From: Lamellibrachia columna
Lineage: Eukaryota > Annelida > Polychaeta > Sabellida > Siboglinidae
Direction: 5' to 3'
DNA: 64,000 nucleotides
Assembly (NCBI GenBank): GCA_963662155.1
Contig: OY759273.1
Span: forward strand, 1 to 64,000
Position 1 is the stretch's first letter. Each line of letters starts with the position of its first letter. Below the pieces are notes generated by a model. That model had not been told where the DNA came from. It searched no databases and worked only from the letters and a program-made list of their open reading frames with translations. The translations under genes were made by a program, and so were the position numbers. Positions 1 through 62,489 of the stretch are shown here, piece by piece.

Positions 1-3000
1 TAACCCTAATGATCAGGCATACTTGTATCACTTAAAGACACCTCCTCTAATGTACACTTTACGGTACACAAAATAATTTTAAACGCAATCCATAGAGGGC
101 CGTCAATATATTAGATTTAACTATAACCTAACACTGCCATAGTGCTAACCCCAGACTCGGTAACCCTAATGATCAGGCATACTTGTATCACTTAAAGACA
201 CACTCCTCTATTGTACACTTTACGGTACACAAAATAATTTTAAACGCAATCACATAGAGGGCCGTCAATATATTAGATTTAACTATAACCTAACACTGCC
301 CATAGTGCTAAACCCCAACTCTAACCCTAATGATCAGGCATACTTGTATCACTTAAAGACACCTCCTCTATTGTACACTTTACGGTACACAAAATAATTT
401 AAACGCAATCCATAGAGGGCCGTCAATATATTAGATTTAACTATAACCTAACACTGCCCATAGTGCTAACCCAACTCTAACCCTAATGATCAGGCATACT
501 TGTATCACTTAAAGACACCTCCTCTATTGTACACTTTACGGTACACAAAATAATTTTAAACGCAATCCATAGAGGGGCCGTCAATATATTAGATTTAACT
601 ATAACCTAACACTGCCCATAGTGCTAACCCCAACTCTAACCCCTAATGATCAGGCATACTTGTATCACTTAAAGACACCTCCTCTATTGTACACTTTACG
701 GTACACAAAATAATTTTAAACGCAATCCATAGAGGGCCGTCAATATATTAGATTTAACTATAACCTAACACTGCCCATAGTGCTAACCCCAACTCTAACC
801 CTAATGATCAGGCATACTTGTATCACTTAAAGACACCTCCTCTATTGTACACTTTACGGTACACAAAATAATTTTAAACGCAATCCATAGAGGGCCGTCA
901 ATATATTAGATTTAACTATAACCTAACACTGCCCATAGTGCTAACCCCAACTCTAACCCTAATGATCAGGCATACTTGTATCACTTAAAGACACCTCCTC
1001 TATTGTACACTTTACGGTACACAAAATAATTTTAAACGCAATCCATAGAGGGCCGTCAATATATTAGATTTAACTATAACCTAACACTGCCCATAGTGCT
1101 AACCCCAACTCTAACCCTAATGATCAGGCATACTTGTATCACTTAAAGACACCTCCTCTATTGTACACTTTACGGTACACAAAATAATTTTAAACGCAAT
1201 CCATAGAGGGCCGTCAATATATTAGATTTAACTATAACCTAACACTGCCCATAGTGCTAACCCCAACTCTAACCCTAATGATCAGGCATACTTGTATCAC
1301 TTAAAGACACCTCCTCTATTGTACACTTTACGGTACACAAAATAATTTTAAACGCAATCCATAGAGGGCCGTCAATATATTAGATTTAACTATAACCTAA
1401 CACTGCCCATAGTGCTAACCCCAACTCTAACCCTAATGATCAGGCATACTTGTATCACTTAAAGACACCTCCTCTATTGTACACTTTACGGTACACAAAA
1501 TAATTTTAAACGCAATCCATAGAGGGCCGTCAATATATTAGATTTAACTATAACCTAACACTGCCCATAGTGCTAACCCCAACTCTAACCCTAATGATCA
1601 GGCATACTTGTATCACTTAAAGACACCTCCTCTATTGTACACTTTACGGTACACAAAATAATTTTAAACGCAATCCATAGAGGGCCGTCAATATATTAGA
1701 TTTAACTATAACCTAACACTGCCCATAGTGCTAACCCCAACTCTAACCCTAATGATCAGGCATACTTGTATCACTTAAAGACACCTCCTCTATTGTACAC
1801 TTTACGGTACACAAAATAATTTTAAACGCAATCCATAGAGGGCCGTCAATATATTAGATTTAACTATAACCTAACACTGCCCATAGTGCTAACCCCAACT
1901 CTAACCCTAATGATCAGGCATACTTGTATCACTTAAAGACACCTCCTCTATTGTACACTTTACGGTACACAAAATAATTTTAAACGCAATCCATAGAGGG
2001 CCGTCAATATATTAGATTTAACTATAACCTAACACTGCCCATAGTGCTAACCCCAACTCTAACCCTAATGATCAGGCATACTTGTATCACTTAAAGACAC
2101 CTCCTCTATTGTACACTTTACGGTACACAAAATAATTTTAAACGCAATCCATAGAGGGCCGTCAATATATTAGATTTAACTATAACCTAACACTGCCCAT
2201 AGTGCTAACCCCAACTCTAACCCTAATGATCAGGCATACTTGTATCACTTAAAGACACCTCCTCTATTGTACACTTTACGGTACACAAAATAATTTTAAA
2301 CGCAATCCATAGAGGGCCGTCAATATATTAGATTTAACTATAACCTAACACTGCCCATAGTGCTAACCCCAACTCTAACCCTAATGATCAGGCATACTTG
2401 TATCACTTAAAGACACCTCCTCTATTGTACACTTTACGGTACACAAAATAATTTTAAACGCAATCCATAGAGGGCCGTCAATATATTAGATTTAACTATA
2501 ACCTAACACTGCCCATAGTGCTAACCCCAACTCTAACCCTAATGATCAGGCATACTTGTATCACTTAAAGACACCTCCTCTATTGTACACTTTACGGTAC
2601 ACAAAATAATTTTAAACGCAATCCATAGAGGGCCGTCAATATATTAGATTTAACTATAACCTAACACTGCCCATAGTGCTAACCCCAACTCTAACCCTAA
2701 TGATCAGGCATACTTGTATCACTTAAAGACACCTCCTCTATTGTACACTTTACGGTACACAAAATAATTTTAAACGCAATCCATAGAGGGCCGTCAATAT
2801 ATTAGATTTAACTATAACCTAACACTGCCCATAGTGCTAACCCCAACTCTAACCCTAATGATCAGGCATACTTGTATCACTTAAAGACACCTCCTCTATT
2901 GTACACTTTACGGTACACAAAATAATTTTAAACGCAATCCATAGAGGGCCGTCAATATATTAGATTTAACTATAACCTAACACTGCCCATAGTGCTAACC

Positions 3001-6000
3001 CCAACTCTAACCCTAATGATCAGGCATACTTGTATCACTTAAAGACACCTCCTCTATTGTACACTTTACGGTACACAAAATAATTTTAAACGCAATCCAT
3101 AGAGGGCCGTCAATATATTAGATTTAACTATAACCTAACACTGCCCATAGTGCTAACCCCAACTCTAACCCTAATGATCAGGCATACTTGTATCACTTAA
3201 AGACACCTCCTCTATTGTACACTTTACGGTACACAAAATAATTTTAAACGCAATCCATAGAGGGCCGTCAATATATTAGATTTAACTATAACCTAACACT
3301 GCCCATAGTGCTAACCCCAACTCTAACCCTAATGATCAGGCATACTTGTATCACTTAAAGACACCTCCTCTATTGTACACTTTACGGTACACAAAATAAT
3401 TTTAAACGCAATCCATAGAGGGCCGTCAATATATTAGATTTAACTATAACCTAACACTGCCCATAGTGCTAACCCCAACTCTAACCCTAATGATCAGGCA
3501 TACTTGTATCACTTAAAGACACCTCCTCTATTGTACACTTTACGGTACACAAAATAATTTTAAACGCAATCCATAGAGGGCCGTCAATATATTAGATTTA
3601 ACTATAACCTAACACTGCCCATAGTGCTAACCCCAACTCTAACCCTAATGATCAGGCATACTTGTATCACTTAAAGACACCTCCTCTATTGTACACTTTA
3701 CGGTACACAAAATAATTTTAAACGCAATCCATAGAGGGCCGTCAATATATTAGATTTAACTATAACCTAACACTGCCCATAGTGCTAACCCCAACTCTAA
3801 CCCTAATGATCAGGCATACTTGTATCACTTAAAGACACCTCCTCTATTGTACACTTTACGGTACACAAAATAATTTTAAACGCAATCCATAGAGGGCCGT
3901 CAATATATTAGATTTAACTATAACCTAACACTGCCCATAGTGCTAACCCCAACTCTAACCCTAATGATCAGGCATACTTGTATCACTTAAAGACACCTCC
4001 TCTATTGTACACTTTACGGTACACAAAATAATTTTAAACGCAATCCATAGAGGGCCGTCAATATATTAGATTTAACTATAACCTAACACTGCCCATAGTG
4101 CTAACCCCAACTCTAACCCTAATGATCAGGCATACTTGTATCACTTAAAGACACCTCCTCTATTGTACACTTTACGGTACACAAAATAATTTTAAACGCA
4201 ATCCATAGAGGGCCGTCAATATATTAGATTTAACTATAACCTAACACTGCCCATAGTGCTAACCCCAACTCTAACCCTAATGATCAGGCATACTTGTATC
4301 ACTTAAAGACACCTCCTCTATTGTACACTTTACGGTACACAAAATAATTTTAAACGCAATCCATAGAGGGCCGTCAATATATTAGATTTAACTATAACCT
4401 AACACTGCCCATAGTGCTAACCCCAACTCTAACCCTAATGATCAGGCATACTTGTATCACTTAAAGACACCTCCTCTATTGTACACTTTACGGTACACAA
4501 AATAATTTTAAACGCAATCCATAGAGGGCCGTCAATATATTAGATTTAACTATAACCTAACACTGCCCATAGTGCTAACCCCAACTCTAACCCTAATGAT
4601 CAGGCATACTTGTATCACTTAAAGACACCTCCTCTATTGTACACTTTACGGTACACAAAATAATTTTAAACGCAATCCATAGAGGGCCGTCAATATATTA
4701 GATTTAACTATAACCTAACACTGCCCATAGTGCTAACCCCAACTCTAACCCTAATGATCAGGCATACTTGTATCACTTAAAGACACCTCCTCTATTGTAC
4801 ACTTTACGGTACACAAAATAATTTTAAACGCAATCCATAGAGGGCCGTCAATATATTAGATTTAACTATAACCTAACACTGCCCATAGTGCTAACCCCAA
4901 CTCTAACCCTAATGATCAGGCATACTTGTATCACTTAAAGACACCTCCTCTATTGTACACTTTACGGTACACAAAATAATTTTAAACGCAATCCATAGAG
5001 GGCCGTCAATATATTAGATTTAACTATAACCTAACACTGCCCATAGTGCTAACCCCAACTCTAACCCTAATGATCAGGCATACTTGTATCACTTAAAGAC
5101 ACCTCCTCTATTGTACACTTTACGGTACACAAAATAATTTTAAACGCAATCCATAGAGGGCCGTCAATATATTAGATTTAACTATAACCTAACACTGCCC
5201 ATAGTGCTAACCCCAACTCTAACCCTAATGATCAGGCATACTTGTATCACTTAAAGACACCTCCTCTATTGTACACTTTACGGTACACAAAATAATTTTA
5301 AACGCAATCCATAGAGGGCCGTCAATATATTAGATTTAACTATAACCTAACACTGCCCATAGTGCTAACCCCAACTCTAACCCTAATGATCAGGCATACT
5401 TGTATCACTTAAAGACACCTCCTCTATTGTACACTTTACGGTACACAAAATAATTTTAAACGCAATCCATAGAGGGCCGTCAATATATTAGATTTAACTA
5501 TAACCTAACACTGCCCATAGTGCTAACCCCAACTCTAACCCTAATGATCAGGCATACTTGTATCACTTAAAGACACCTCCTCTATTGTACACTTTACGGT
5601 ACACAAAATAATTTTAAACGCAATCCATAGAGGGCCGTCAATATATTAGATTTAACTATAACCTAACACTGCCCATAGTGCTAACCCCAACTCTAACCCT
5701 AATGATCAGGCATACTTGTATCACTTAAAGACACCTCCTCTATTGTACACTTTACGGTACACAAAATAATTTTAAACGCAATCCATAGAGGGCCGTCAAT
5801 ATATTAGATTTAACTATAACCTAACACTGCCCATAGTGCTAACCCCAACTCTAACCCTAATGATCAGGCATACTTGTATCACTTAAAGACACCTCCTCTA
5901 TTGTACACTTTACGGTACACAAAATAATTTTAAACGCAATCCATAGAGGGCCGTCAATATATTAGATTTAACTATAACCTAACACTGCCCATAGTGCTAA

Positions 6001-9000
6001 CCCCAACTCTAACCCTAATGATCAGGCATACTTGTATCACTTAAAGACACCTCCTCTATTGTACACTTTACGGTACACAAAATAATTTTAAACGCAATCC
6101 ATAGAGGGCCGTCAATATATTAGATTTAACTATAACCTAACACTGCCCATAGTGCTAACCCCAACTCTAACCCTAATGATCAGGCATACTTGTATCACTT
6201 AAAGACACCTCCTCTATTGTACACTTTACGGTACACAAAATAATTTTAAACGCAATCCATAGAGGGCCGTCAATATATTAGATTTAACTATAACCTAACA
6301 CTGCCCATAGTGCTAACCCCAACTCTAACCCTAATGATCAGGCATACTTGTATCACTTAAAGACACCTCCTCTATTGTACACTTTACGGTACACAAAATA
6401 ATTTTAAACGCAATCCATAGAGGGCCGTCAATATATTAGATTTAACTATAACCTAACACTGCCCATAGTGCTAACCCCAACTCTAACCCTAATGATCAGG
6501 CATACTTGTATCACTTAAAGACACCTCCTCTATTGTACACTTTACGGTACACAAAATAATTTTAAACGCAATCCATAGAGGGCCGTCAATATATTAGATT
6601 TAACTATAACCTAACACTGCCCATAGTGCTAACCCCAACTCTAACCCTAATGATCAGGCATACTTGTATCACTTAAAGACACCTCCTCTATTGTACACTT
6701 TACGGTACACAAAATAATTTTAAACGCAATCCATAGAGGGCCGTCAATATATTAGATTTAACTATAACCTAACACTGCCCATAGTGCTAACCCCAACTCT
6801 AACCCTAATGATCAGGCATACTTGTATCACTTAAAGACACCTCCTCTATTGTACACTTTACGGTACACAAAATAATTTTAAACGCAATCCATAGAGGGCC
6901 GTCAATATATTAGATTTAACTATAACCTAACACTGCCCATAGTGCTAACCCCAACTCTAACCCTAATGATCAGGCATACTTGTATCACTTAAAGACACCT
7001 CCTCTATTGTACACTTTACGGTACACAAAATAATTTTAAACGCAATCCATAGAGGGCCGTCAATATATTAGATTTAACTATAACCTAACACTGCCCATAG
7101 TGCTAACCCCAACTCTAACCCTAATGATCAGGCATACTTGTATCACTTAAAGACACCTCCTCTATTGTACACTTTACGGTACACAAAATAATTTTAAACG
7201 CAATCCATAGAGGGCCGTCAATATATTAGATTTAACTATAACCTAACACTGCCCATAGTGCTAACCCCAACTCTAACCCTAATGATCAGGCATACTTGTA
7301 TCACTTAAAGACACCTCCTCTATTGTACACTTTACGGTACACAAAATAATTTTAAACGCAATCCATAGAGGGCCGTCAATATATTAGATTTAACTATAAC
7401 CTAACACTGCCCATAGTGCTAACCCCAACTCTAACCCTAATGATCAGGCATACTTGTATCACTTAAAGACACCTCCTCTATTGTACACTTTACGGTACAC
7501 AAAATAATTTTAAACGCAATCCATAGAGGGCCGTCAATATATTAGATTTAACTATAACCTAACACTGCCCATAGTGCTAACCCCAACTCTAACCCTAATG
7601 ATCAGGCATACTTGTATCACTTAAAGACACCTCCTCTATTGTACACTTTACGGTACACAAAATAATTTTAAACGCAATCCATAGAGGGCCGTCAATATAT
7701 TAGATTTAACTATAACCTAACACTGCCCATAGTGCTAACCCCAACTCTAACCCTAATGATCAGGCATACTTGTATCACTTAAAGACACCTCCTCTATTGT
7801 ACACTTTACGGTACACAAAATAATTTTAAACGCAATCCATAGAGGGCCGTCAATATATTAGATTTAACTATAACCTAACACTGCCCATAGTGCTAACCCC
7901 AACTCTAACCCTAATGATCAGGCATACTTGTATCACTTAAAGACACCTCCTCTATTGTACACTTTACGGTACACAAAATAATTTTAAACGCAATCCATAG
8001 AGGGCCGTCAATATATTAGATTTAACTATAACCTAACACTGCCCATAGTGCTAACCCCAACTCTAACCCTAATGATCAGGCATACTTGTATCACTTAAAG
8101 ACACCTCCTCTATTGTACACTTTACGGTACACAAAATAATTTTAAACGCAATCCATAGAGGGCCGTCAATATATTAGATTTAACTATAACCTAACACTGC
8201 CCATAGTGCTAACCCCAACTCTAACCCTAATGATCAGGCATACTTGTATCACTTAAAGACACCTCCTCTATTGTACACTTTACGGTACACAAAATAATTT
8301 TAAACGCAATCCATAGAGGGCCGTCAATATATTAGATTTAACTATAACCTAACACTGCCCATAGTGCTAACCCCAACTCTAACCCTAATGATCAGGCATA
8401 CTTGTATCACTTAAAGACACCTCCTCTATTGTACACTTTACGGTACACAAAATAATTTTAAACGCAATCCATAGAGGGCCGTCAATATATTAGATTTAAC
8501 TATAACCTAACACTGCCCATAGTGCTAACCCCAACTCTAACCCTAATGATCAGGCATACTTGTATCACTTAAAGACACCTCCTCTATTGTACACTTTACG
8601 GTACACAAAATAATTTTAAACGCAATCCATAGAGGGCCGTCAATATATTAGATTTAACTATAACCTAACACTGCCCATAGTGCTAACCCCAACTCTAACC
8701 CTAATGATCAGGCATACTTGTATCACTTAAAGACACCTCCTCTATTGTACACTTTACGGTACACAAAATAATTTTAAACGCAATCCATAGAGGGCCGTCA
8801 ATATATTAGATTTAACTATAACCTAACACTGCCCATAGTGCTAACCCCAACTCTAACCCTAATGATCAGGCATACTTGTATCACTTAAAGACACCTCCTC
8901 TATTGTACACTTTACGGTACACAAAATAATTTTAAACGCAATCCATAGAGGGCCGTCAATATATTAGATTTAACTATAACCTAACACTGCCCATAGTGCT

Positions 9001-11978
9001 AACCCCAACTCTAACCCTAATGATCAGGCATACTTGTATCACTTAAAGACACCTCCTCTATTGTACACTTTACGGTACACAAAATAATTTTAAACGCAAT
9101 CCATAGAGGGCCGTCAATATATTAGATTTAACTATAACCTAACACTGCCCATAGTGCTAACCCCAACTCTAACCCTAATGATCAGGCATACTTGTATCAC
9201 TTAAAGACACCTCCTCTATTGTACACTTTACGGTACACAAAATAATTTTAAACGCAATCCATAGAGGGCCGTCAATATATTAGATTTAACTATAACCTAA
9301 CACTGCCCATAGTGCTAACCCCAACTCTAACCCTAATGATCAGGCATACTTGTATCACTTAAAGACACCTCCTCTATTGTACACTTTACGGTACACAAAA
9401 TAATTTTAAACGCAATCCATAGAGGGCCGTCAATATATTAGATTTAACTATAACCTAACACTGCCCATAGTGCTAACCCCAACTCTAACCCTAATGATCA
9501 GGCATACTTGTATCACTTAAAGACACCTCCTCTATTGTACACTTTACGGTACACAAAATAATTTTAAACGCAATCCATAGAGGGCCGTCAATATATTAGA
9601 TTTAACTATAACCTAACACTGCCCATAGTGCTAACCCCAACTCTAACCCTAATGATCAGGCATACTTGTATCACTTAAAGACACCTCCTCTATTGTACAC
9701 TTTACGGTACACAAAATAATTTTAAACGCAATCCATAGAGGGCCGTCAATATATTAGATTTAACTATAACCTAACACTGCCCATAGTGCTAACCCCAACT
9801 CTAACCCTAATGATCAGGCATACTTGTATCACTTAAAGACACCTCCTCTATTGTACACTTTACGGTACACAAAATAATTTTAAACGCAATCCATAGAGGG
9901 CCGTCAATATATTAGATTTAACTATAACCTAACACTGCCCATAGTGCTAACCCCAACTCTAACCCTAATGATCAGGCATACTTGTATCACTTAAAGACAC
10001 CTCCTCTATTGTACACTTTACGGTACACAAAATAATTTTAAACGCAATCCATAGAGGGCCGTCAATATATTAGATTTAACTATAACCTAACACTGCCCAT
10101 AGTGCTAACCCCAACTCTAACCCTAATGATCAGGCATACTTGTATCACTTAAAGACACCTCCTCTATTGTACACTTTACGGTACACAAAATAATTTTAAA
10201 CGCAATCCATAGAGGGCCGTCAATATATTAGATTTAACTATAACCTAACACTGCCCATAGTGCTAACCCCAACTCTAACCCTAATGATCAGGCATACTTG
10301 TATCACTTAAAGACACCTCCTCTATTGTACACTTTACGGTACACAAAATAATTTTAAACGCAATCCATAGAGGGCCGTCAATATATTAGATTTAACTATA
10401 ACCTAACACTGCCCATAGTGCTAACCCCAACTCTAACCCTAATGATCAGGCATACTTGTATCACTTAAAGACACCTCCTCTATTGTACACTTTACGGTAC
10501 ACAAAATAATTTTAAACGCAATCCATAGAGGGCCGTCAATATATTAGATTTAACTATAACCTAACACTGCCCATAGTGCTAACCCCAACTCTAACCCTAA
10601 TGATCAGGCATACTTGTATCACTTAAAGACACCTCCTCTATTGTACACTTTACGGTACACAAAATAATTTTAAACGCAATCCATAGAGGGCCGTCAATAT
10701 ATTAGATTTAACTATAACCTAACACTGCCCATAGTGCTAACCCCAACTCTAACCCTAATGATCAGGCATACTTGTATCACTTAAAGACACCTCCTCTATT
10801 GTACACTTTACGGTACACAAAATAATTTTAAACGCAATCCATAGAGGGCCGTCAATATATTAGATTTAACTATAACCTAACACTGCCCATAGTGCTAACC
10901 CCAACTCTAACCCTAATGATCAGGCATACTTGTATCACTTAAAGACACCTCCTCTATTGTACACTTTACGGTACACAAAATAATTTTAAACGCAATCCAT
11001 AGAGGGCCGTCAATATATTAGATTTAACTATAACCTAACACTGCCCATAGTGCTAACCCCAACTCTAACCCTAATGATCAGGCATACTTGTATCACTTAA
11101 AGACACCTCCTCTATTGTACACTTTACGGTACACAAAATAATTTTAAACGCAATCCATAGAGGGCCGTCAATATATTAGATTTAACTATAACCTAACACT
11201 GCCCATAGTGCTAACCCCAACTCTAACCCTAATGATCAGGCATACTTGTATCACTTAAAGACACCTCCTCTATTGTACACTTTACGGTACACAAAATAAT
11301 TTTAAACGCAATCCATAGAGGGCCGTCAATATATTAGATTTAACTATAACCTAACACTGCCCATAGTGCTAACCCCAACTCTAACCCTAATGATCAGGCA
11401 TACTTGTATCACTTAAAGACACCTCCTCTATTGTACACTTTACGGTACACAAAATAATTTTAAACGCAATCCATAGAGGGCCGTCAATATATTAGATTTA
11501 ACTATAACCTAACACTGCCCATAGTGCTAACCCCAACTCTAACCCTAATGATCAGGCATACTTGTATCACTTAAAGACACCTCCTCTATTGTACACTTTA
11601 CGGTACACAAAATAATTTTAAACGCAATCCATAGAGGGCCGTCAATATATTAGATTTAACTATAACCTAACACTGCCCATAGTGCTAACCCCAACTCTAA
11701 CCCTAATGATCAGGCATACTTGTATCACTTAAAGACACCTCCTCTATTGTACACTTTACGGTACACAAAATAATTTTAAACGCAATCCATAGAGGGCCGT
11801 CAATATATTAGATTTAACTATAACCTAACACTGCCCATAGTGCTAACCCCAACTCTAACCCTAATGATCAGGCATACTTGTATCACTTAAAGACACCTCC
11901 TCTATTGTACACTTTACGGTACACAAAATAATTTTAAACGCAATCCATAGAGGGCCGTCAATATATTAGATTTAACTA
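1..11978. repeat. 158-bp satellite array, about 76 copies
   Basis: Head-to-tail array with a period of exactly 158 bp; identical phase recurs at offsets of 4,740 bp, which is 30 units. From unit 6 (about base 803) the copies look essentially identical. Units 1-5 carry small indels, with spacings of 160, 161, 156, 160 and 158 bp. Each monomer contains CTAACCCCAACTCTAACCC followed by TAA, a degenerate telomere-like stretch (CCCTAA strand), but only once per monomer, so this is not a telomere. The last monomer is cut after ATTTAACTA. I see no coding potential. A subtelomeric or pericentromeric satellite is likely; the array continues to the window edge. Confidence 0.98.
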
Positions 11979-44911: not shown

Positions 44912-44987
44912 CTGTGTCCAGCCTCTCCAAGCCAGGCGCACCTGATGCAGGTAGCAATACCTGAGTGCCTTACACTCATTACTGTAG
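44912..44987 (-). CDS. SFI1: SFI1-like protein, short internal exon
   Basis: Acceptor GTGTGCTTGCAG, donor ACACAG|GTAAGG (strong consensus); 76 bp, phase 2 in and 0 out. Translation: (S)YSNECKALRYCYLHQVRLAW, then RGWTQ. ALRYC..H.....W..W fits an Sfi1 repeat. Both phases agree with the exons at 46,154 and 32,227, which are its neighbours in the transcript despite a 12.7-kb intron on the 3' side. Confidence 0.82.
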
Positions 44988-46153: not shown

Positions 46154-46239
46154 CTTTGTCGAGCAGACAACGTATTCTTTCGCCACATGCAGAACAATGT
46201 TTTAAGCAGGCAGAACGCATAGTGTTCCACAGCGGAATC
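46154..46239 (-). CDS. SFI1: SFI1-like protein, short internal exon
   Basis: Acceptor TTGTTTCAATTGTAG, donor CAAAG|GTAGCA; 86 bp, phase 0 in and 2 out. Translation: DSAVEHYAFCLLKTLFCMWR, KNTLSARQ(S). A..H....LL...F..WR is the classic Sfi1 repeat spacing. The split Ser codon (AG|C) is completed by the exon at 44,987. Confidence 0.82.
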
Positions 46240-47138: not shown

Positions 47139-47313
47139 CCATTTCAAAGCATCATCCAGGGCTATGTGATAGTGAGCGCGCCACATGAGGAAGTATTCCC
47201 GCTGCAGTGTCTTCTCATGGTTCAGCACTGCCATTCTGTGCACGAGTCGCAGGTCCTGGCGGTGTTCGTACGCTGCATGCCAGCGATACAGGAAACAGGC
47301 CTGCAGGTTCAGT
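47139..47313 (-). CDS. SFI1: SFI1-like protein, internal exon
   Basis: Acceptor CTCTTTCACAG|ACTGAAC, donor AAATGG|GTCTGT; 175 bp, phase 2 in and 0 out. Translation: LNLQACFLYRWHAAYEHRQD, LRLVHRMAVLNHEKTLQREY, FLMWRAHYHIALDDALKW. F..RW...Y and YFLMWR...... are two successive Sfi1-like helices. The acceptor is the founding copy of the 36/42-bp array upstream. Confidence 0.85.
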
Positions 47314-47876
47314 CTGTGAAAGAGAAAGTGAAAGAAACATGTCTGAAGGTTCAGTCTGTGAAAGAGAAAGAAACATGCCTGCAGGTTCAGTCTGTGAACG
47401 AGAAAGTGAAAGAAACATGTCTGAAGGTTCAGTCTGTGAAAGAGAAAGAAACATGCCTGCAGCTTCAGTCTGTGAAAGAGAAAGAAACATGCCTGCAGGT
47501 TCAGTCTGTGAAAGAGAAAGTAAAAGAAACATGTCTGTCTGAAAGTTCAGTCTGTGAAAGAGATTGAAACATGTCTGCAGCTTCAGTCTGTGAAAGAAAC
47601 ATGTCTGAAGGTCTGGTCTGTGAAAGAGAAAGTGGAAGAAACATTTCTGAACGTTCAGTCTGTGAAAGAGATAGTGAAAAAACATGTCCAAAGGTTCAGT
47701 ATGCGAAAGAGAAAGTAAAAAAACATGACTGAAAGTTCAGTCTGTGAAAGAGAAAGAAACATATCTGAAGGTTCAGTCTGTGAAATAGAAAGTGAAAGAA
47801 ACATGTCTGAAGGTTCAGTCAGTGAAAGAGAAAGTGTCAGAAGCATGTCTGAACGTTCAGTCTGTGAAAGACAACC
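47314..47876. repeat. 36/42-bp minisatellite founded on a splice acceptor
   Basis: About 14 copies. On the minus strand each unit reads TTTCTTTCTCTTTCACAG|AC then TGAACCTGCAGGCATG, i.e. pyrimidine tract, CAG and about 17 bases of exon start. The real exon begins ACTGAACCTGCAGGCCTG at 47,313. Units are 36 bp, or 42 bp with an extra TTTCAC; both are multiples of three. Copies decay with distance from the exon. Confidence 0.93.
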
Positions 47877-48253
47877 CTAGATAGAAGTGAACGTACTACC
47901 TGAATCTGACTGCTTCCTTAGACAACTCTAGATAGAAGTGAACGTACTGCCTGAATCTGATTGCTTCCTTAGACAACTCTAGATAGAAGTGAACGTACCG
48001 CCTGAACCTGACTGCTTCCTTAGACAACTCTAGATAGAAGTGAACGTACCGCCTGAATCTGATGGCTTCCTTAGACAACTCTAGATAGAAGTGAACGTAC
48101 CGCCTGAACCTGACTGCTTCCTTAGACAACTCTAGATAGAAGTGAACGTACCGCCTGAATCTGACTGCTTCCTTAGACAACTCTAGATAGAAGTGAACAT
48201 ACCGCCTGAACCTGACTGCTTCCTTAGACAACTCTAGATAGAAGTGAACGTAC
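47877..48253. repeat. 51-bp minisatellite founded on a splice donor, 8 donor copies
   Basis: On the minus strand each unit is GTACGTTCACTTCTATCTAG then AGTTGTCTAAGGAAGCAGTC and AGGTTCAGGCG. Thus the exon end AAGCAGTCAAGTTCAGGCG| and donor GTACGTTC at 48,254 recur at 51-bp steps. Seven further GTACGT/GTATGT donors follow. The frame stays open through the array, each unit adding 17 residues (YVHFYLELSKEAVRFRR). It meets the acceptor array at about 47,876. Confidence 0.94.
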
Positions 48254-48384
48254 CGCCTGAACTTGACTGCTTCTTCAGACATCTCTCGTTTCTTCTGCAT
48301 CAGTTCAATGAATTGCCTGATGGCATCAAGACAACGTGGCAGCACCAGCTTCCTGTAGTGACAGTCGGCCACGAGGTACTGTGT
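48254..48384 (-). CDS. SFI1: SFI1-like protein, most upstream exon recognised
   Basis: Acceptor TATGTTTTATACAG, donor TCAGGCG|GTACGT; 131 bp, phase 0 in and 2 out. Translation: TQYLVADCHYRKLVLPRCLD, AIRQFIELMQKKREMSEEAV, KFR(R). The helical, basic composition matches the following Sfi1-type repeats. I found no exon of this gene at higher coordinates, so the N-terminal half, usually rich in further repeats, is outside the window or hidden by transposon insertions. Confidence 0.8.
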
Positions 48385-51484: not shown

Positions 51485-51898
51485 ATGCATCTGTCTTTTT
51501 GTATTATAAGTTCTAAATGAACTCATTTTGTACTGCTTTTGAAGTGTCATGATACCATCCCCTATTATTTATTTGGCTCAGAGGAGAAGTACCATCAGTT
51601 CCATTTAGATAATGTAACTTTGTTATCGAACAATACAATGTTTTTGTTTTAAAATCAAAAACCTGATGAGTTGTTAAATTTTTTGGCTTGCAAAATGGCT
51701 AGTGATAAAAAGTTTTCAAATAAAAAATTAGAATATCATATTATGATTGAGCTGATGATATTAGGAAGTGAATATCATTGTTGTAAAATTATCATTATGA
51801 TGCAAAGTAGCAAAGATATTTGAATACCCAACACACAAAAATGTGTTACACTGTCCATGTTGGACATTGTTCTGAAATTACTTTATTTTTACAACAAA

Positions 51899-53147
51899 AT
51901 GGATCATCCTGATCCAGTAGAAGTGAAAAAGCTGAAGGCAAGAGAGTGCCAAAGGAAACGGAGAGAAATTAATAGAGAATTCAGAAACATTTGAAAGAAG
52001 GATGCCACACAACAACAAAAGAACTGGGATGCTAAGCGGCTAACTACGACAGAGGGAAAAGAGGAAACATCAAGGAGTTGAGAGACTGAGACAGCAAAAG
52101 CATAGAAAGATTAAAACTGAATGGGTGGAAAGGACAGTCAGATCGAGAGGAGTAAAGAAACAAGTGAAACTGATGACACCTGCTGAAAGAAGAGAATATG
52201 AGAAGCAGAAGAAGGCTTATACAGTGTAGTAGAAAACAATTGATGGGTAAAAAAAATGGTAGATTAAAGGAAAAAGATAGTGATAGAAAAAAGGGACGGT
52301 AAAGCAAAGCATGCTTGAAGACACTGTTGGTGATGAAGATGATGGGATAATGTCAGAAGACGCAGCTGAAGAAAAGGAAGGTCCCCAAGCACTGAATACC
52401 ACAAGCAGGCAGCTCAGATATTACTACTGTAGAAAAATACTTGAAAGGATGCCACAACACAGAACACACAGAGCAGAAGCACTTCAGTCTATTATCCTCT
52501 CTGCTACACCTACCTCCAGAAAAGCATATAAGAAATGAGGGATTATGGTTAAAACAAGTGCACCAACCAAACAGTTTAATGCCAGAATTTAAAGGGATGA
52601 TCATGGAAAGGGATGTTTGCAGAAAAATATCATCAAATCATGCCCTCAGGATCAAAAGAAAATACAAGAAAATCTAAACAAAATGGCTAAAACACTGGCT
52701 GTTTCTAAAGGTAAAGTGTTCAGGGATATTAGCATGCTCGCTGGGACTGCCAAATTTAGAAAAGACAGGGTATCCCCACAATGGATGAATCGAATCCAGG
52801 ATTTCTTCTTCAGAGAAGACATTAGCAGAGCTGTACCAGGGAAAACAGTGTGAGCTGCTTTCAAACAACACAAGGCAAAGTGTCTTCTGAGCATGACAGT
52901 TGAAGATGCATACAAAATCTTGTGAGATGAAAATCCAGCCTTCCCTTACAAGCTCACAATATTCAAGAAATTCCGTCCGCCAAATGTGAGGATCCCAAGG
53001 TTCAGTGATCGTATTCAGTGCACCTGTCCCAAGCACACAAATGTTGAAAGGAAGATAGCTGCTTTGAATGCCATCATGAAAAGATTGGTACTGGGTAATA
53101 CCAATTTACATGTAGTCAGATTTCCAGGTATTACTATGTTAATCAAG
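51899..53147 (+). pseudogene. Broken gene of an expanded uncharacterised invertebrate family, copy 1
   Basis: It begins MDHPDPVEVKKLKARECQRK then RREINREF, a basic N-terminus, and breaks at several stops and frameshifts. Later pieces read QLRYYYCRKILERMPQHRTH, ISMLAGTAKFRKDRVSPQWM, NRIQDFFFREDISRAVPGKT, stop, AAFKQHKAKCLLSMTVEDAY, stop, KKFRPPNVRIPRFSDRIQCT, CPKHTNVERKIAALNAI. The F..R.DISR..PGK..., L.MT..DAY, F...RP..V and C.C..H.N phrases match a family I know as many uncharacterised proteins in cnidarian and lophotrochozoan genomes, possibly carried by transposons. The function is unknown. It ends at a donor-like ATCAAG|GTAATC. Confidence 0.65.
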
Positions 53148-53743
53148 GTAATCTTCTTCGTATTTTATGAAAAAGTAATTTGAATCAGGTAAACCAACAG
53201 CCCAACCAAGTATAGACAGTTTGAAAATAAAGATTAATTTGATTAACCTTGTCGTTTATGTCACGTCTGTCATAATTAATGTCGCATCTGTCACACAGGG
53301 GTTTTTGTCCTGTAGAATGCATCTGTCTTTTTGTATTATAAGTTCTAAATGAACTCATTTTGTACTGCTTTTGAAGTGTCATGATACCATCCCCTATTAT
53401 TTATTTGGCTCAGAGGAGAAGTACCATCAGTTCCATTTAGATAATGTAACTTTGTTATCGAACAATACAATGTTTTTGTTTTAAAATCAAAAACCTGATG
53501 AGTTGTTAAATTTTTTGGCTTGCCTAAAACTTAAGCAAAATGGCTAGTGATAAGAAGTTTTTCAAATAAAAATTTAGAATATCATATTATGATTGAGCTG
53601 ATGATATTAGGAAGTGAATATCATTGTTGTAAAATGATCATTATGATGCAAAGTAGCAAAGATATTTGAATACCCAACACAAAAAATGTGTTACACTGTC
53701 CATGTTGGACATTGTTCTGAAATTACTTTATTTTTACAACAAA

Positions 53744-54995
53744 ATGGATCATCCTGATCCAGTAGAAGTGAAAAAGCTGAAGGCAAGAGAGTGCCAAAGG
53801 AAACGGAGAGAAATTAATAGAGAATTCAGAAACATTTGAAAGAAGGATGCCACACAACAACAAAATAACTGGGATGCTAAGCGGCTAACTACGACAGAGG
53901 GAAAAGAGGAAACATCAAGGAGTTGAGAGACTGAGACAACAAAAGCATAGAAAGATTAAAACTGAATGGGTGGAAAGGACAGTCAGATCGAGAGGAGTAA
54001 AGAAACAAGTGAAACTGATGACACCTGCTGAACGAAGAGAATATGAGAAGCAGAACAAGGCTTATACAGTGTAGTAGAAAACAATTGACGGGTACAAAAC
54101 ATCGTAGATTAAAGTAAAAAGATAGTGATAGAAAAAAGGGACGGTAAAGCAAAGCATGCTTGAAGACACTGTTGCTGGTGATGAAGATGATGGAATAATG
54201 TCAGAAGACGCAGCTGAAGAAAAGGAAGGTCCCCAAGCACTGAATACCACGAGCAGGCAGCTCAGATATTACTACTGTAGAAAAATACTTGAAAGGATGC
54301 CACAACACAGAACACACAGAGCAGAAGCACTTCAGTCTATTATCCTCTCTGCTACACCTACCTCCAGAAAAGCATATAAGAAATGAGGGATTATGGTTAA
54401 AACAAGTGCACCAACCAAACAGTTTAATGCCAGAATTTAAAGGGATGATCATGGAAAGGGATGTTTGCAGAAAAATATCATCAAATCATGCCCTCAGGAT
54501 CAAAAGAAAATACAAGAAAATCTAACAAAAATGGCTAAAACACTGGCTGTTTCTAAAGGTAAAGTGTACAGGGATATTAGCATGCTCACTGGGACTGCCA
54601 AATTTAGAAAAGACAGGGTATCCCCACAATGGATGAATCGAATCCAGGATTTCTTCTTCAGAGAAGACATTAGCAGAGCTGTACCAGGGAAAACAATGTG
54701 AGCTGCTTTCAAACAACACAAGGCAAAGTGTCTTCTGAGCATGACAGTTGAAGATGCATACAAAATCTTGTGAGATGAAAATCCAGCCTTCCCTTACAAG
54801 TTCACAATATTCAAGAAATTCCGTCCGCCAAATGTGAGGATCCCAAGGTTCAGTGATCGTATTCAGTGCACCTGTCCCAAGCACACAAATGTTGAAAGGA
54901 AGATAGCTGCTTTGAATGCCATCATGAAAAGATTGGTACTGGGTAATACCAATTTACATGTAGTCAGATTTCCAGGTATTACTATGTTAATCAAG
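53744..54995 (+). pseudogene. Same broken gene, copy 2
   Basis: Second copy within the tandem duplication. It shares the disabling TGA after VPGKT/M (54,701 region) and the TGA in DAYKIL-stop-DENPAF with copy 1, so the gene was already dead when duplicated. Differences include the N-terminal region (an AAGGCTTAT context) and an added Ala codon near 54,172. Confidence 0.65.
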
Positions 54996-55166
54996 GTAAT
55001 CTTCTTCGTATTTTATGAAAAAGTAATTTGAATCAGGTAAACCAACAGCCCAACCAAGTATAGAGACAGTTTGAAAATAAAGATTAATTTGATTAACCTT
55101 GTCGTTTATGTCACGTCTGTCATAATTAATGTCGCATCTGTCACACAGGGGTTTTTGTCCTGTAGA

Positions 55167-59955: not shown

Positions 59956-62489
59956 GGGGAGGCTTGGGAGAGTTGGGCCACAGGGAGAGTTGGGCCACTC
60001 CCAATTTCATGGAAGTTGCAAGTTGTTGTGGACAGGTGCTGCCATCTATTTGAAGTACAAGACATTATCTTTTTATTGATATAAGGGGCTTGACACATTT
60101 AGGCTTGCTGTCCATGTTTTTAACAGAAATACATTTTATGCACAAAATAGTAAAAATTGGACTCTAAGTTAAGCAATTTTATATCTCTTCAATACTATTT
60201 AGTACACTGTTCTTGGGTGTTCTGCAAGATAGCTGTGACAGTCCTCTCCCATCAAGGCGTTTGCGAAATCCATGTGGTCAATGCCTGTGCTAAGATTTAG
60301 AATGAAATAAAAAATGGCGGGTATGGGGAGAGTTGGGACACTCAGGGATGGGAGGGTTGGGCCATGGCCCAACTCTCCCTGCATGGTGTCCCAACTCTCC
60401 CATCACTTACATTTAGTGAATAATCTTTTCTCTTCAGTTTCAGCACACGAAAACATTGTAGTTGGAAAAGGAGTGAAGCAAGTGGGGTCAATCACCTCTG
60501 CTGTACGGCATCAATGCGGCTGGTAGTGTCGTTCCACCTATGCTAATATTCCCACGGAAAAACGTCCGTGAGCATTTCACCAAAGGTGGCCCCCCCCAGG
60601 GTGTATTGGGGGTGCAAATTCAAGTGGTTGGGTCAACGAGGACCTATTCCTGGCCTACCTGAACCATTTCATTTGCCACACGCGATGCAGCAAGGAAAAT
60701 AAAGTTTTTCTTATCTTAGATAACCATGAGGCCCACATTTCTCTGGCTGCCATTGACTTGGCTAAAGAAAATGGTGTAGTGTTACTGACAATGCCACCAC
60801 ATACCAGTCATCGGCTTCAACCTCTCGATGTGTGTTGTTTCAAACCTTTCAAGACGACATATGCTCAAGCTATGGAAAATTGGATGCGATCAAATACTGG
60901 CAAAACAATTACGATATATGAAATACATGAATTTGTTGCCCATGCTCAGTTGCATGGCCTCACTGCAAAAAACATTTTGTCAGCATTTCAAAGTACCGGC
61001 ATTTTCCCTTACAACCGGGATTTGTTCGATGAAACGGACTTTTCGCCAGCCACAGTTACTGATCGAGATCTTCCAGAGGAGTTGGAGAGAAATGATCCAA
61101 TTCCTGCTGAACAACTACCAGCTCCCCAACCAGAACCCAGTTCTACTGCAACACCGGTTCCCCAGCCAGAAACAGATTCTACTGCAACACCAGCCCAACA
61201 GCCAGAACCAAGTTCTACTGTAACACCAGCCCAACAGCCAGAACCGAGTTCTACTGCAGCACCAGCCCGACAGCCAGAACCGAGTTCTACTGCAACACCA
61301 GCTCCGGCTCAGCCAGGGCCAAGAAACCATTATGTATCGCCTGCTGATATTGTTCCGCTTCCAAAAGCTGGTCCACGAAAGGTTACCAACAGAGGTCGCA
61401 AGAGAGGGGATACAAAGATTCTAACCGATACTCCAGTACATAATAGCATAACAGACGCACTCGCTGCTAGGCACACTAAAAAACGAAAGTCAAATCAACC
61501 AGTCAAACATAGAGCTAAAAAGTCCTTCATCAGAAAGTGATACCGAAGATGTGCCATTCATGGAAAGTGGTGAAAGTGATGCTGATGAGCCAGATTACCA
61601 AGTCATTGAAGGTGATTTTGCAGTTGTAAAATTTGTGTTGGCCAAATCACGCATTGTCCATTATATAGCGCGGGTTGACGTTATTGATGGAGACGAGTGT
61701 GAAGGTGTTTTTCTTCGACGAGAATTCAGTCGTCATCAGACAATATCTACATTCATGATTAATGATAAAGATGAAGCATCATTCCCTAAGAAGGACATCA
61801 TCAGGAAGCTACCTGAGCCTCAATAGCTTGGTGGCACAGCTCGTCGAGCAGGAAAATTTACATTTCCTTGTGACTTCACACGATGGGATTTCCACTCATC
61901 TCTTTATTAGGCATCATCGAACCTATCATGTATTGTGCATCACATAGCACAGGTTGACACTGTTGATTGGGACGAGTGTGAAAGTGTGCCTCAATATCAC
62001 AGTCATTTTAAAATGTGCTAAAACACAGCATAATTCCATTTTAGGATTTGATATAGGGGTCTATGACAAAATAATCAGTGACATCATTAAAAAAGTTAGA
62101 ACTGGAATATTTTGTTGATCAAGGTTGACTTTTTCTAGTGGAGTGCTACTGGACCATGTTCTTAATATCTATTAATGGTTATTTTAAGTTTGGAATTAAA
62201 TTGTTCACATTTTCCTTCACTGTCCCAAGTCTCCGATTTTGTGGCCCAGCTGTCCTCAGCTATGGCCCAACTCTCCCTGGGAGTGGTGAGAGTTGGGCCA
62301 TATCGGGATGACACCTTTCAACAATCACCTCCTCTTTCTACATGTGTGCCTGCATTTTGAATCAGCTGACACAGATTGTATATTATGGTCTGTACATATC
62401 ACAATCACAGGAAATGGTAATCTGCCATGAATAGAGAGAGCACAATGTGTCAAAATGTAAAAAGTGGCCCAACTCTCCCAAGCCTCCCC
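59956..62489 (+). mobile_element. Pogo-like transposon, 2.5 kb, TA-flanked, degenerate
   Basis: Terminal inverted repeats GGGGAGGCTTGGGAGAGTTG plus GGCCAC at both ends, flanked by TA (59,954-59,955 and 62,490-62,491). The GAGAGTTGGGCCA motif recurs subterminally at the left (59,982), internally near 60,330-60,410, and at the right (62,260-62,300). The coding part is described separately. Flanking sequence on the left is the LINE reverse transcriptase. Confidence 0.92.
60430..61826 (+). pseudogene. Pogo-family DDE transposase pseudogene
   Basis: After a splice-acceptor-like TTTTCTCTTCAG come IVVGKGVKQVGSITSAVR, a deletion, then SVVPPMLIFPRKNVREHFTK. A frameshift at a C/G run near 60,590 follows, then WVNEDLFLAYLNHFICHTRC and VFLILDNHEAHISLAAIDLA (second catalytic Asp). 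LTMPPHTSHRLQPLDVCCFK (third) and TGIFPYNRDLFDETDF come next, then a Pro/Gln/Ser-rich tail with about five PEPSSTATPAQQ-type repeats (61,110-61,310). A 1-nt shift near 61,520 separates the acidic C-terminal part (SESDTEDVPFMESGESDADE .. FLRREF .. IIRKLPEP). The DNA-binding domain and first Asp are missing. The protein cuts and pastes its own element at TA in functional relatives. Confidence 0.88.

What the first reader, a model, noticed from the sequence alone, without database searches (positions are those of the whole stretch)
47314..48253. An intron made only of a donor minisatellite meeting an acceptor minisatellite, all frame-neutral
The 940-bp intron between the SFI1-like exons ending at 48,254 and starting at 47,313 is filled by two arrays: 51-bp units repeating the exon end plus GTACGTTC donor, then 36/42-bp units repeating TTTCTCTTTCACAG plus exon start. 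There are eight donor copies and roughly a dozen acceptor copies. All unit lengths are multiples of three and the donor array has no stop in frame, so every donor/acceptor pairing should give an in-frame protein with 0-7 added 17-residue helical segments. This could be a splice-length generator for a repeat protein, or simply neutral because selection tolerates only in-frame expansions.
Basis: partly seen in the sequence, partly recalled or inferred. Interest (0 to 1): 0.9.

Follow-up and report, generated by a model that had tools for sequence, protein, structure and literature searches.

The report
Minisatellites copying both exon edges
In what is likely a deep-sea tubeworm genome, one intron is made only of tandem copies of its own two exon edges, and other genes of the same genome carry such arrays too; the extra splice sites are likely decoys that splicing would have to ignore, not a generator of longer proteins.

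Summary
The anatomy is real: the 940-bp intron (47314-48253, minus strand) is a 51-bp array of the exon-end/donor edge (8 copies) meeting an array of the acceptor/exon-start edge (15 units, 13 with AG). The frame claim fails: 3 of 14 acceptor steps are not multiples of three, the eighth donor copy carries TAG, and 42 of 104 pairs are open. The locus is one of at least 16 chromosome-end copies in the assembly. Unit numbers vary (6-11 donor, 13-21 acceptor); the outermost pair is open in 16 of 16, while 3 of 16 lose inner donors. CSN5 in this genome has the same two-ended architecture with 65- and about 71-bp units, and only its outermost pair is open (1 of 55). Near 5 of 40 myosin match ends, arrays cross an exon edge, no more often than flanking sequence is in arrays. 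These are 'mirages', known from amphioxus, here in a probable vestimentiferan tubeworm (CSN5 100% identical to Lamellibrachia satsuma over 87 residues). Best reading: boundary-blind minisatellite growth, tolerated because splicing likely uses the exon-proximal sites. No RNA was available for this gene.

The parts
48254..48378 (-). exon E1 (shown from its second possible acceptor; 125 nt, ends in phase 2)
   Evidence: identical in 13 of 16 copies, one A>G change in the other 3
47869..48253 (-). donor array: 8 GTA(C/T)GTTC donors 51 bp apart; each full unit is intron start plus copied exon end
   Evidence: a search of the assembly with this DNA matched only the 16 chromosome-end loci
48252..48253 (-). 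outermost donor GT (predicted to be the one used)
   Evidence: joins to the last acceptor to give an open frame; so in 16 of 16 copies
47896..47898 (-). in-frame TAG at the eighth donor copy
47314..47868 (-). acceptor array: 15 units, steps 30-46 bp, with TTTCTCTTTCACAG plus copied exon start; 13 with AG
47314..47315 (-). outermost acceptor AG (predicted to be the one used)
   Evidence: relatives P0121 and P0122 start the homologous stretch with the same RLNLQACFL
47139..47313 (-). exon E2 (175 nt)
46154..46239 (-). exon E3 (86 nt)
44912..44987 (-). exon E4 (76 nt)
   Evidence: found in 15 of 16 copies

Best explanation
The 940-bp intron consists of two minisatellites, eight copies of the exon-end/donor edge followed by fifteen copies of the acceptor/exon-start edge, and it likely grew by tandem duplication across the two exon-intron boundaries, with splicing predicted to join only the outermost donor to the outermost acceptor so that the inner copies are likely neutral decoys ('mirages'). 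Steps. (1) Shown: units span exon and intron, at both ends, here and in CSN5; at one end near five of 40 myosin match ends, where the exon edge itself is read from the sequence. (2) Shown: unit number varies between near-identical copies in one assembly. (3) Inferred: a duplication across a donor puts its extra copy on the intron side as long as the exon-proximal donor is still chosen (mirror image at the acceptor), so it is free of frame constraint. (4) Inferred, not shown by RNA here: the exon-proximal site is chosen by exon definition, that is by its distance to the splice site at the other end of the same exon, since the U1 match of donors 1-6 is alike. (5) Supported by CSN5: the only open product is the outermost-outermost one, and it is the conserved protein.
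For: Outermost pair open in 16 of 16 copies; inner donors lose the frame wholly in C10R and C13R and from donor 5 on in C4L. U1 duplex energies of donors 1-6 are -5.1 to -5.5 (donors 7 and 8: -1.7 and -2.1), so strength does not single out the first. Exon changes among copies are 14 nonsynonymous to 7 synonymous, and exon and intron-2 segregating-site rates do not differ (Fisher p=0.66). Donor-array changes are 8 synonymous, 9 nonsynonymous and 2 stop of 19 distinct changes in 108 units, two of the nonsynonymous ones together making TAG in 13 units; no significant excess of synonymous (p=0.18). CSN5 (E=2e-41 to human CSN5): 11 donors 65 bp apart and 9 acceptor units, 5 with AG, most steps 71 bp; 1 of 55 GT/AG pairs open, the outermost pair, giving the same 87 residues as P0001 and P0002. 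P0002 comes from a contig of at most 1575 nt although the gene spans about 8 kb and eight exons here, so it is likely a transcript. 5 of 40 myosin match ends lie within 20 nt of a boundary-crossing array against 20% of flanking bases in arrays (p=0.32), so exon edges are not a special place. Relatives P0121 and P0122 show no acceptor array in the 40 and about 99 codons before the same exon start.
Against: No RNA for the SFI1-like copies. In human segmental duplications, tandem repeats at exon-intron boundaries do give alternative transcripts (PMC2812944, passages), so inner use here is possible. 42 of 104 pairs here and 110 of 143 in C15R are open, so some inner use would not be harmful at once. 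It is not shown that the SFI1-like copies are expressed at all. P0002 is not shown to be from this species, and its genome may lack the arrays. The exon edges of the other 15 myosin matches were not located, so 5 of 40 may be too low.
Confidence: 0.78

Rival explanations
1. Splice-length generator: inner donors and acceptors are used in part and yield a family of proteins with extra 17-residue (donor) and 12- or 14-residue (acceptor) segments.
For: 42 of 104 pairs are open in the window copy and 110 of 143 in copy C15R. Boundary repeats give alternative transcripts in human duplicated genes (passages).
Against: Frame not kept: steps of 41, 46, 43, 35, 34 and 29 bp, a 5-bp duplication, TAG and TAA at inner donors. 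No coding signature in the array. In CSN5 the same architecture allows only one open product. Extra segments would break the 33-residue spacing of the Trp residues.
Confidence: 0.1
2. The donor array is exon: it is translated through to an inner donor, and the true intron lies only between inner copies.
For: The frame is open through seven copies in the window, and P0123 and P0124, which look like mechanical ORFs, run through six and three copies.
Against: Stop or frameshift at the first repeat in C10R and C13R. P0121 and P0122 start the homologous stretch at the outermost acceptor position. Only the outermost-outermost join keeps E1 and E2 without an insert.
Confidence: 0.06
3. The four exons are a dead gene fragment spread with a subtelomeric duplicon, so no splicing question arises at this locus. 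(Not exclusive of the best explanation, which concerns how the arrays grew.)
For: At least 16 copies within about 303 kb of contig ends, all reading towards the end. 10-kb surroundings mostly 96-98% alike. No sign of selection on the exons taken together. No further SFI1-like exons in the window or the sixteen 10-kb pieces by a profile trained on the window's own repeats.
Against: No stop or frameshift in E1-E3 of 16 copies and E4 of 14. E1 has one variable site in 125. E2 is alike at 73-82% in two unnamed relatives. Does not explain the CSN5 and myosin arrays.
Confidence: 0.35
4. Assembly artefact.
For: Tandem arrays are easily misassembled.
Against: Arrays with different unit numbers and private variants at 16 loci; the donor array also appears in database proteins P0123 and P0124, from contigs of 498600 and 2279 bases whose assemblies are not named.
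Confidence: 0.02

Closest known systems
Amphioxus 'mirages' (Adh3, globins BflGb6 and BflGb9, TnC, PGBD5)
   Same: Minisatellite-like tandem copies that span an exon-intron boundary and often carry AG/GT signals; length varies between haplotypes; the cluster-boundary unit escapes homogenisation; reported not to disturb splicing (PMC3087553 and PMC3902484, passages).
   Different: Here in a probable annelid, at both ends of one intron with nothing between the arrays, in at least 16 chromosome-end copies, and near 5 of 40 sampled myosin match ends. I could not check whether Adh3 has both ends: the 2002 paper is not held.
Internal tandem repeats at exon-intron boundaries of human segmental duplications
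   Same: Boundary minisatellites, on average 30-bp units, in recently duplicated gene copies, variable between paralogs (PMC2812944, passages).
   Different: There RNAs show new introns and alternative transcripts; here no RNA was available, and CSN5 points to one product.
Intron gain by tandem duplication of AG/GT proto-splice sites (Rogers model, as cited in PMC3087553)
   Same: Tandem duplication copies splice sites.
   Different: Here the intron is likely older than the arrays: two relatives have what looks like intron at the same acceptor without them, and the arrays fill it.

Membership tests
Mirage minisatellite | tandem array of minisatellite units | tested here: met
Mirage minisatellite | each unit spans an exon-intron boundary with exon sequence and splice signal | tested here: met
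   (two of 15 acceptor units have lost AG); confirmed by homology for CSN5
Mirage minisatellite | length instability | tested here: met
   6-11 donor and 13-21 acceptor units among 16 near-identical copies, which are paralogs, not alleles
Mirage minisatellite | boundary unit excluded from homogenisation | tested here: met
   the last 30 nt of exon E1 are the same in all 16 copies and differ at four sites from the window's array units
Mirage minisatellite | normal mRNA splicing despite the array | tested here: inconclusive
   no RNA for this gene; CSN5 product agrees
SFI1 (centrin-binding repeat protein) | about 33-residue repeats with conserved Trp | tested here: inconclusive
   Trp at 53, 86, 119 and 152, spaced 33 (two more at 100 and 149); consensus recalled
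SFI1 (centrin-binding repeat protein) | match to Pfam Sfi1 PF08457 | tested here: inconclusive
   no Pfam match and none in the genome, but the model rang in none of the 14 control genomes either
Alternative-splicing length generator | frame kept for all pairings | tested here: not met
   42 of 104 pairs; 4 to 110 open pairs per copy among 16 copies
Alternative-splicing length generator | inner junctions in RNA | not testable with these tools
   no reads available

The most novel reading that the evidence does not exclude
In this worm roughly one exon edge in eight carries a run of near-identical decoy splice sites, and the spliceosome ignores them all by position alone: a genome-wide natural experiment showing that exon definition can choose a splice site even when its sequence is no better than those of ten neighbours.
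Probability: 0.45. Interest if true: 0.75.

Novelty: new member of a known kind. Interest (0 to 1): 0.55.

Why it matters
Mirages were known from a few amphioxus genes. If they are common in a second phylum, they are a general outcome of minisatellite growth, a possible raw material for intron gain, and a ready test of how exon-proximal sites win over equal competitors. They also warn gene predictors: repeated exon edges give false exons and long open frames, such as P0123 and P0124.

Tried and rejected
Frame-keeping selection: rejected. Coding selection on the donor array: no signal. Pairing between donor and acceptor arrays: a 9-nt complement (CAGGTTCAG/CTGAACCTG), seen by eye, exists with one unit variant, but with the consensus unit the longest complement is 5 nt, reached by 1551 of 2000 shuffles. 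Amphioxus as source: rejected by CSN5 identity to Lamellibrachia satsuma. A parental SFI1 gene at C5:55889014 (E=6.2): rejected, it is CSN5. A myosin piece matched twice 492 bp apart, suspected as an array: two separate exon copies, no tandem array. Padded protein search for full-length relatives of the 154 residues: none of 142 candidates scored E <= 1; the unpadded search gave 4 of 38. COX1 for species naming did not complete. The profile was trained on the window's own four repeats, so it is not independent support for SFI1.

Full report
What was checked. The intron lies on the minus strand between exons ending at 48254 and starting at 47313 and is 940 bp long. It holds eight donors exactly 51 bp apart and then fifteen acceptor units, 13 of which end in AG. 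Nothing else lies between the exons. The four exons found in the window join to 154 codons. Trp residues at 53, 86, 119 and 152 are 33 apart, which fits an SFI1-like repeat protein.

The frame claim. Acceptor steps are 42,42,36,41,41,42,30,36,46,36,36,42,36,42, so 3 of 14 break the frame. The eighth donor copy reads TAG. Of 104 GT/AG pairs, 42 are open. A shuffled 51-bp unit is open in a given frame 36% of the time, so an open donor array is weak evidence of anything.

Sixteen copies. The assembly (880 Mb, 30 contigs) holds the window as the start of contig C13, and the exon pair E1-E2 at least sixteen times (the tool calls its counts lower bounds), all within about 303 kb of a contig end and all reading towards it. 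E3 is found in 16 and E4 in 15 of these. A search with the donor array matched only these loci. The long matches of the other fifteen 10-kb pieces to the window's are mostly 96-98% identical, lower in C15R (91-97%) and C2R (93-94%). Donor units number 6 to 11 and acceptor units 13 to 21; the outermost pair is open in 16 of 16; the last donor is closed in 13 of 16; beyond that, no inner donor is open in C10R and C13R, and donors 5-8 are closed in C4L. Exon differences among copies are 14 nonsynonymous, 7 synonymous and one 3-bp deletion; E4 was counted in 14 copies, since that of C2R lies outside the fetched piece and none was found in C15L. Nucleotide diversity is 0.0026, 0.0100 and 0.0107 in E1, E2 and E3 against 0.0071 in intron 2; E1 is thus low, the others not. 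Taken together the exons show no sign of recent selection (p=0.66), which weakens any claim about protein isoforms of these copies.

Generality. A weak match (E=6.2) led to CSN5, a conserved COP9 signalosome subunit. One of its seven introns starts with 11 donors 65 bp apart and ends with 9 acceptor units, 5 with AG, at steps of 71,71,70,71,71,68,72,71. Only the outermost-outermost pair is open, 1 of 55 GT/AG pairs, and it gives the protein found in Lamellibrachia satsuma (P0001, 100% over 87 residues) and in P0002 from a contig of at most 1575 nt. This identity also names the likely source: a vestimentiferan tubeworm. I then took the top 20 of 77 myosin-head matches with about 350 bp on each side. 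Of 40 match ends, taken as stand-ins for exon ends, 5 lie within 20 nt of an array of period 10 or more. On reading, these five arrays cross an exon edge: donor arrays of 34, 34 and 28 bp (L059, L064, L067) and acceptor arrays of 69 and 45 bp with in-frame stops (L063, L065). Flanking bases more than 60 nt from the match, taken as intron, are in such arrays at 20% (2333 of 11630), and eight other loci at 20% (4887 of 24160). Exon edges are thus no richer in arrays than their surroundings (p=0.32).

Mechanism. The simplest account is that minisatellites start anywhere, exon edges included, and that a duplication across an edge is tolerated because its extra copy falls on the intron side while the exon-proximal site stays in use. 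Donors 1 to 6 have alike U1 pairing energies, so position rather than strength would have to decide; exon definition would do this. That step is inferred.

What is known. Amphioxus mirages are the same kind of thing (passages of PMC3087553 and PMC3902484). Searches on minisatellite, exon-intron boundary and amphioxus, on mirage, on tubeworms and tandem repeats (10 of 1156 and 10 of 143 listed), on intron gain and on annelids with exon-intron boundaries showed me no title or abstract start reporting such arrays in annelids. I saw listings only; the two papers were not opened, and the library holds open-licence papers only, so absence from print is not shown. In the Ridgeia piscesae genome paper (PMC9921365) I saw 12 of 19 passages found; the word minisatellite does not occur in its main text.

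Noticed in passing
window 1-11978: A 158-bp satellite in about 76 copies whose unit begins TAACCCTAA; the window is the start of contig C13, so this is likely a telomere-side satellite.
   Followed up: no
L045:7351-9426: CSN5 intron with an 11-copy 65-bp donor array, a separate 26-bp minisatellite and a 9-unit, mostly 71-bp acceptor array.
   Followed up: yes
L047:558-653 and L047:1050-1145: Two copies of the same myosin-head exon piece (Pfam positions 121-152) 492 bp apart, probably mutually exclusive alternative exons.
   Followed up: partly
window 51513-55031: Two copies of one stretch about 1.85 kb apart, seen as pairs of near-identical ORFs (for example 51824-51994 and 53657-53839, plus strand).
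   Followed up: no
window 60572-61540: 322-codon plus-strand ORF (stop to stop) with an internal 36-bp repeat (about 5 copies); looks like a DDE transposase from recall, not tested.
   Followed up: no
L034 (copy C4L), fourth donor: GTACGT changed to GTAAGT, a better donor by consensus (recalled), which also puts TAA into the read-through frame.
   Followed up: partly
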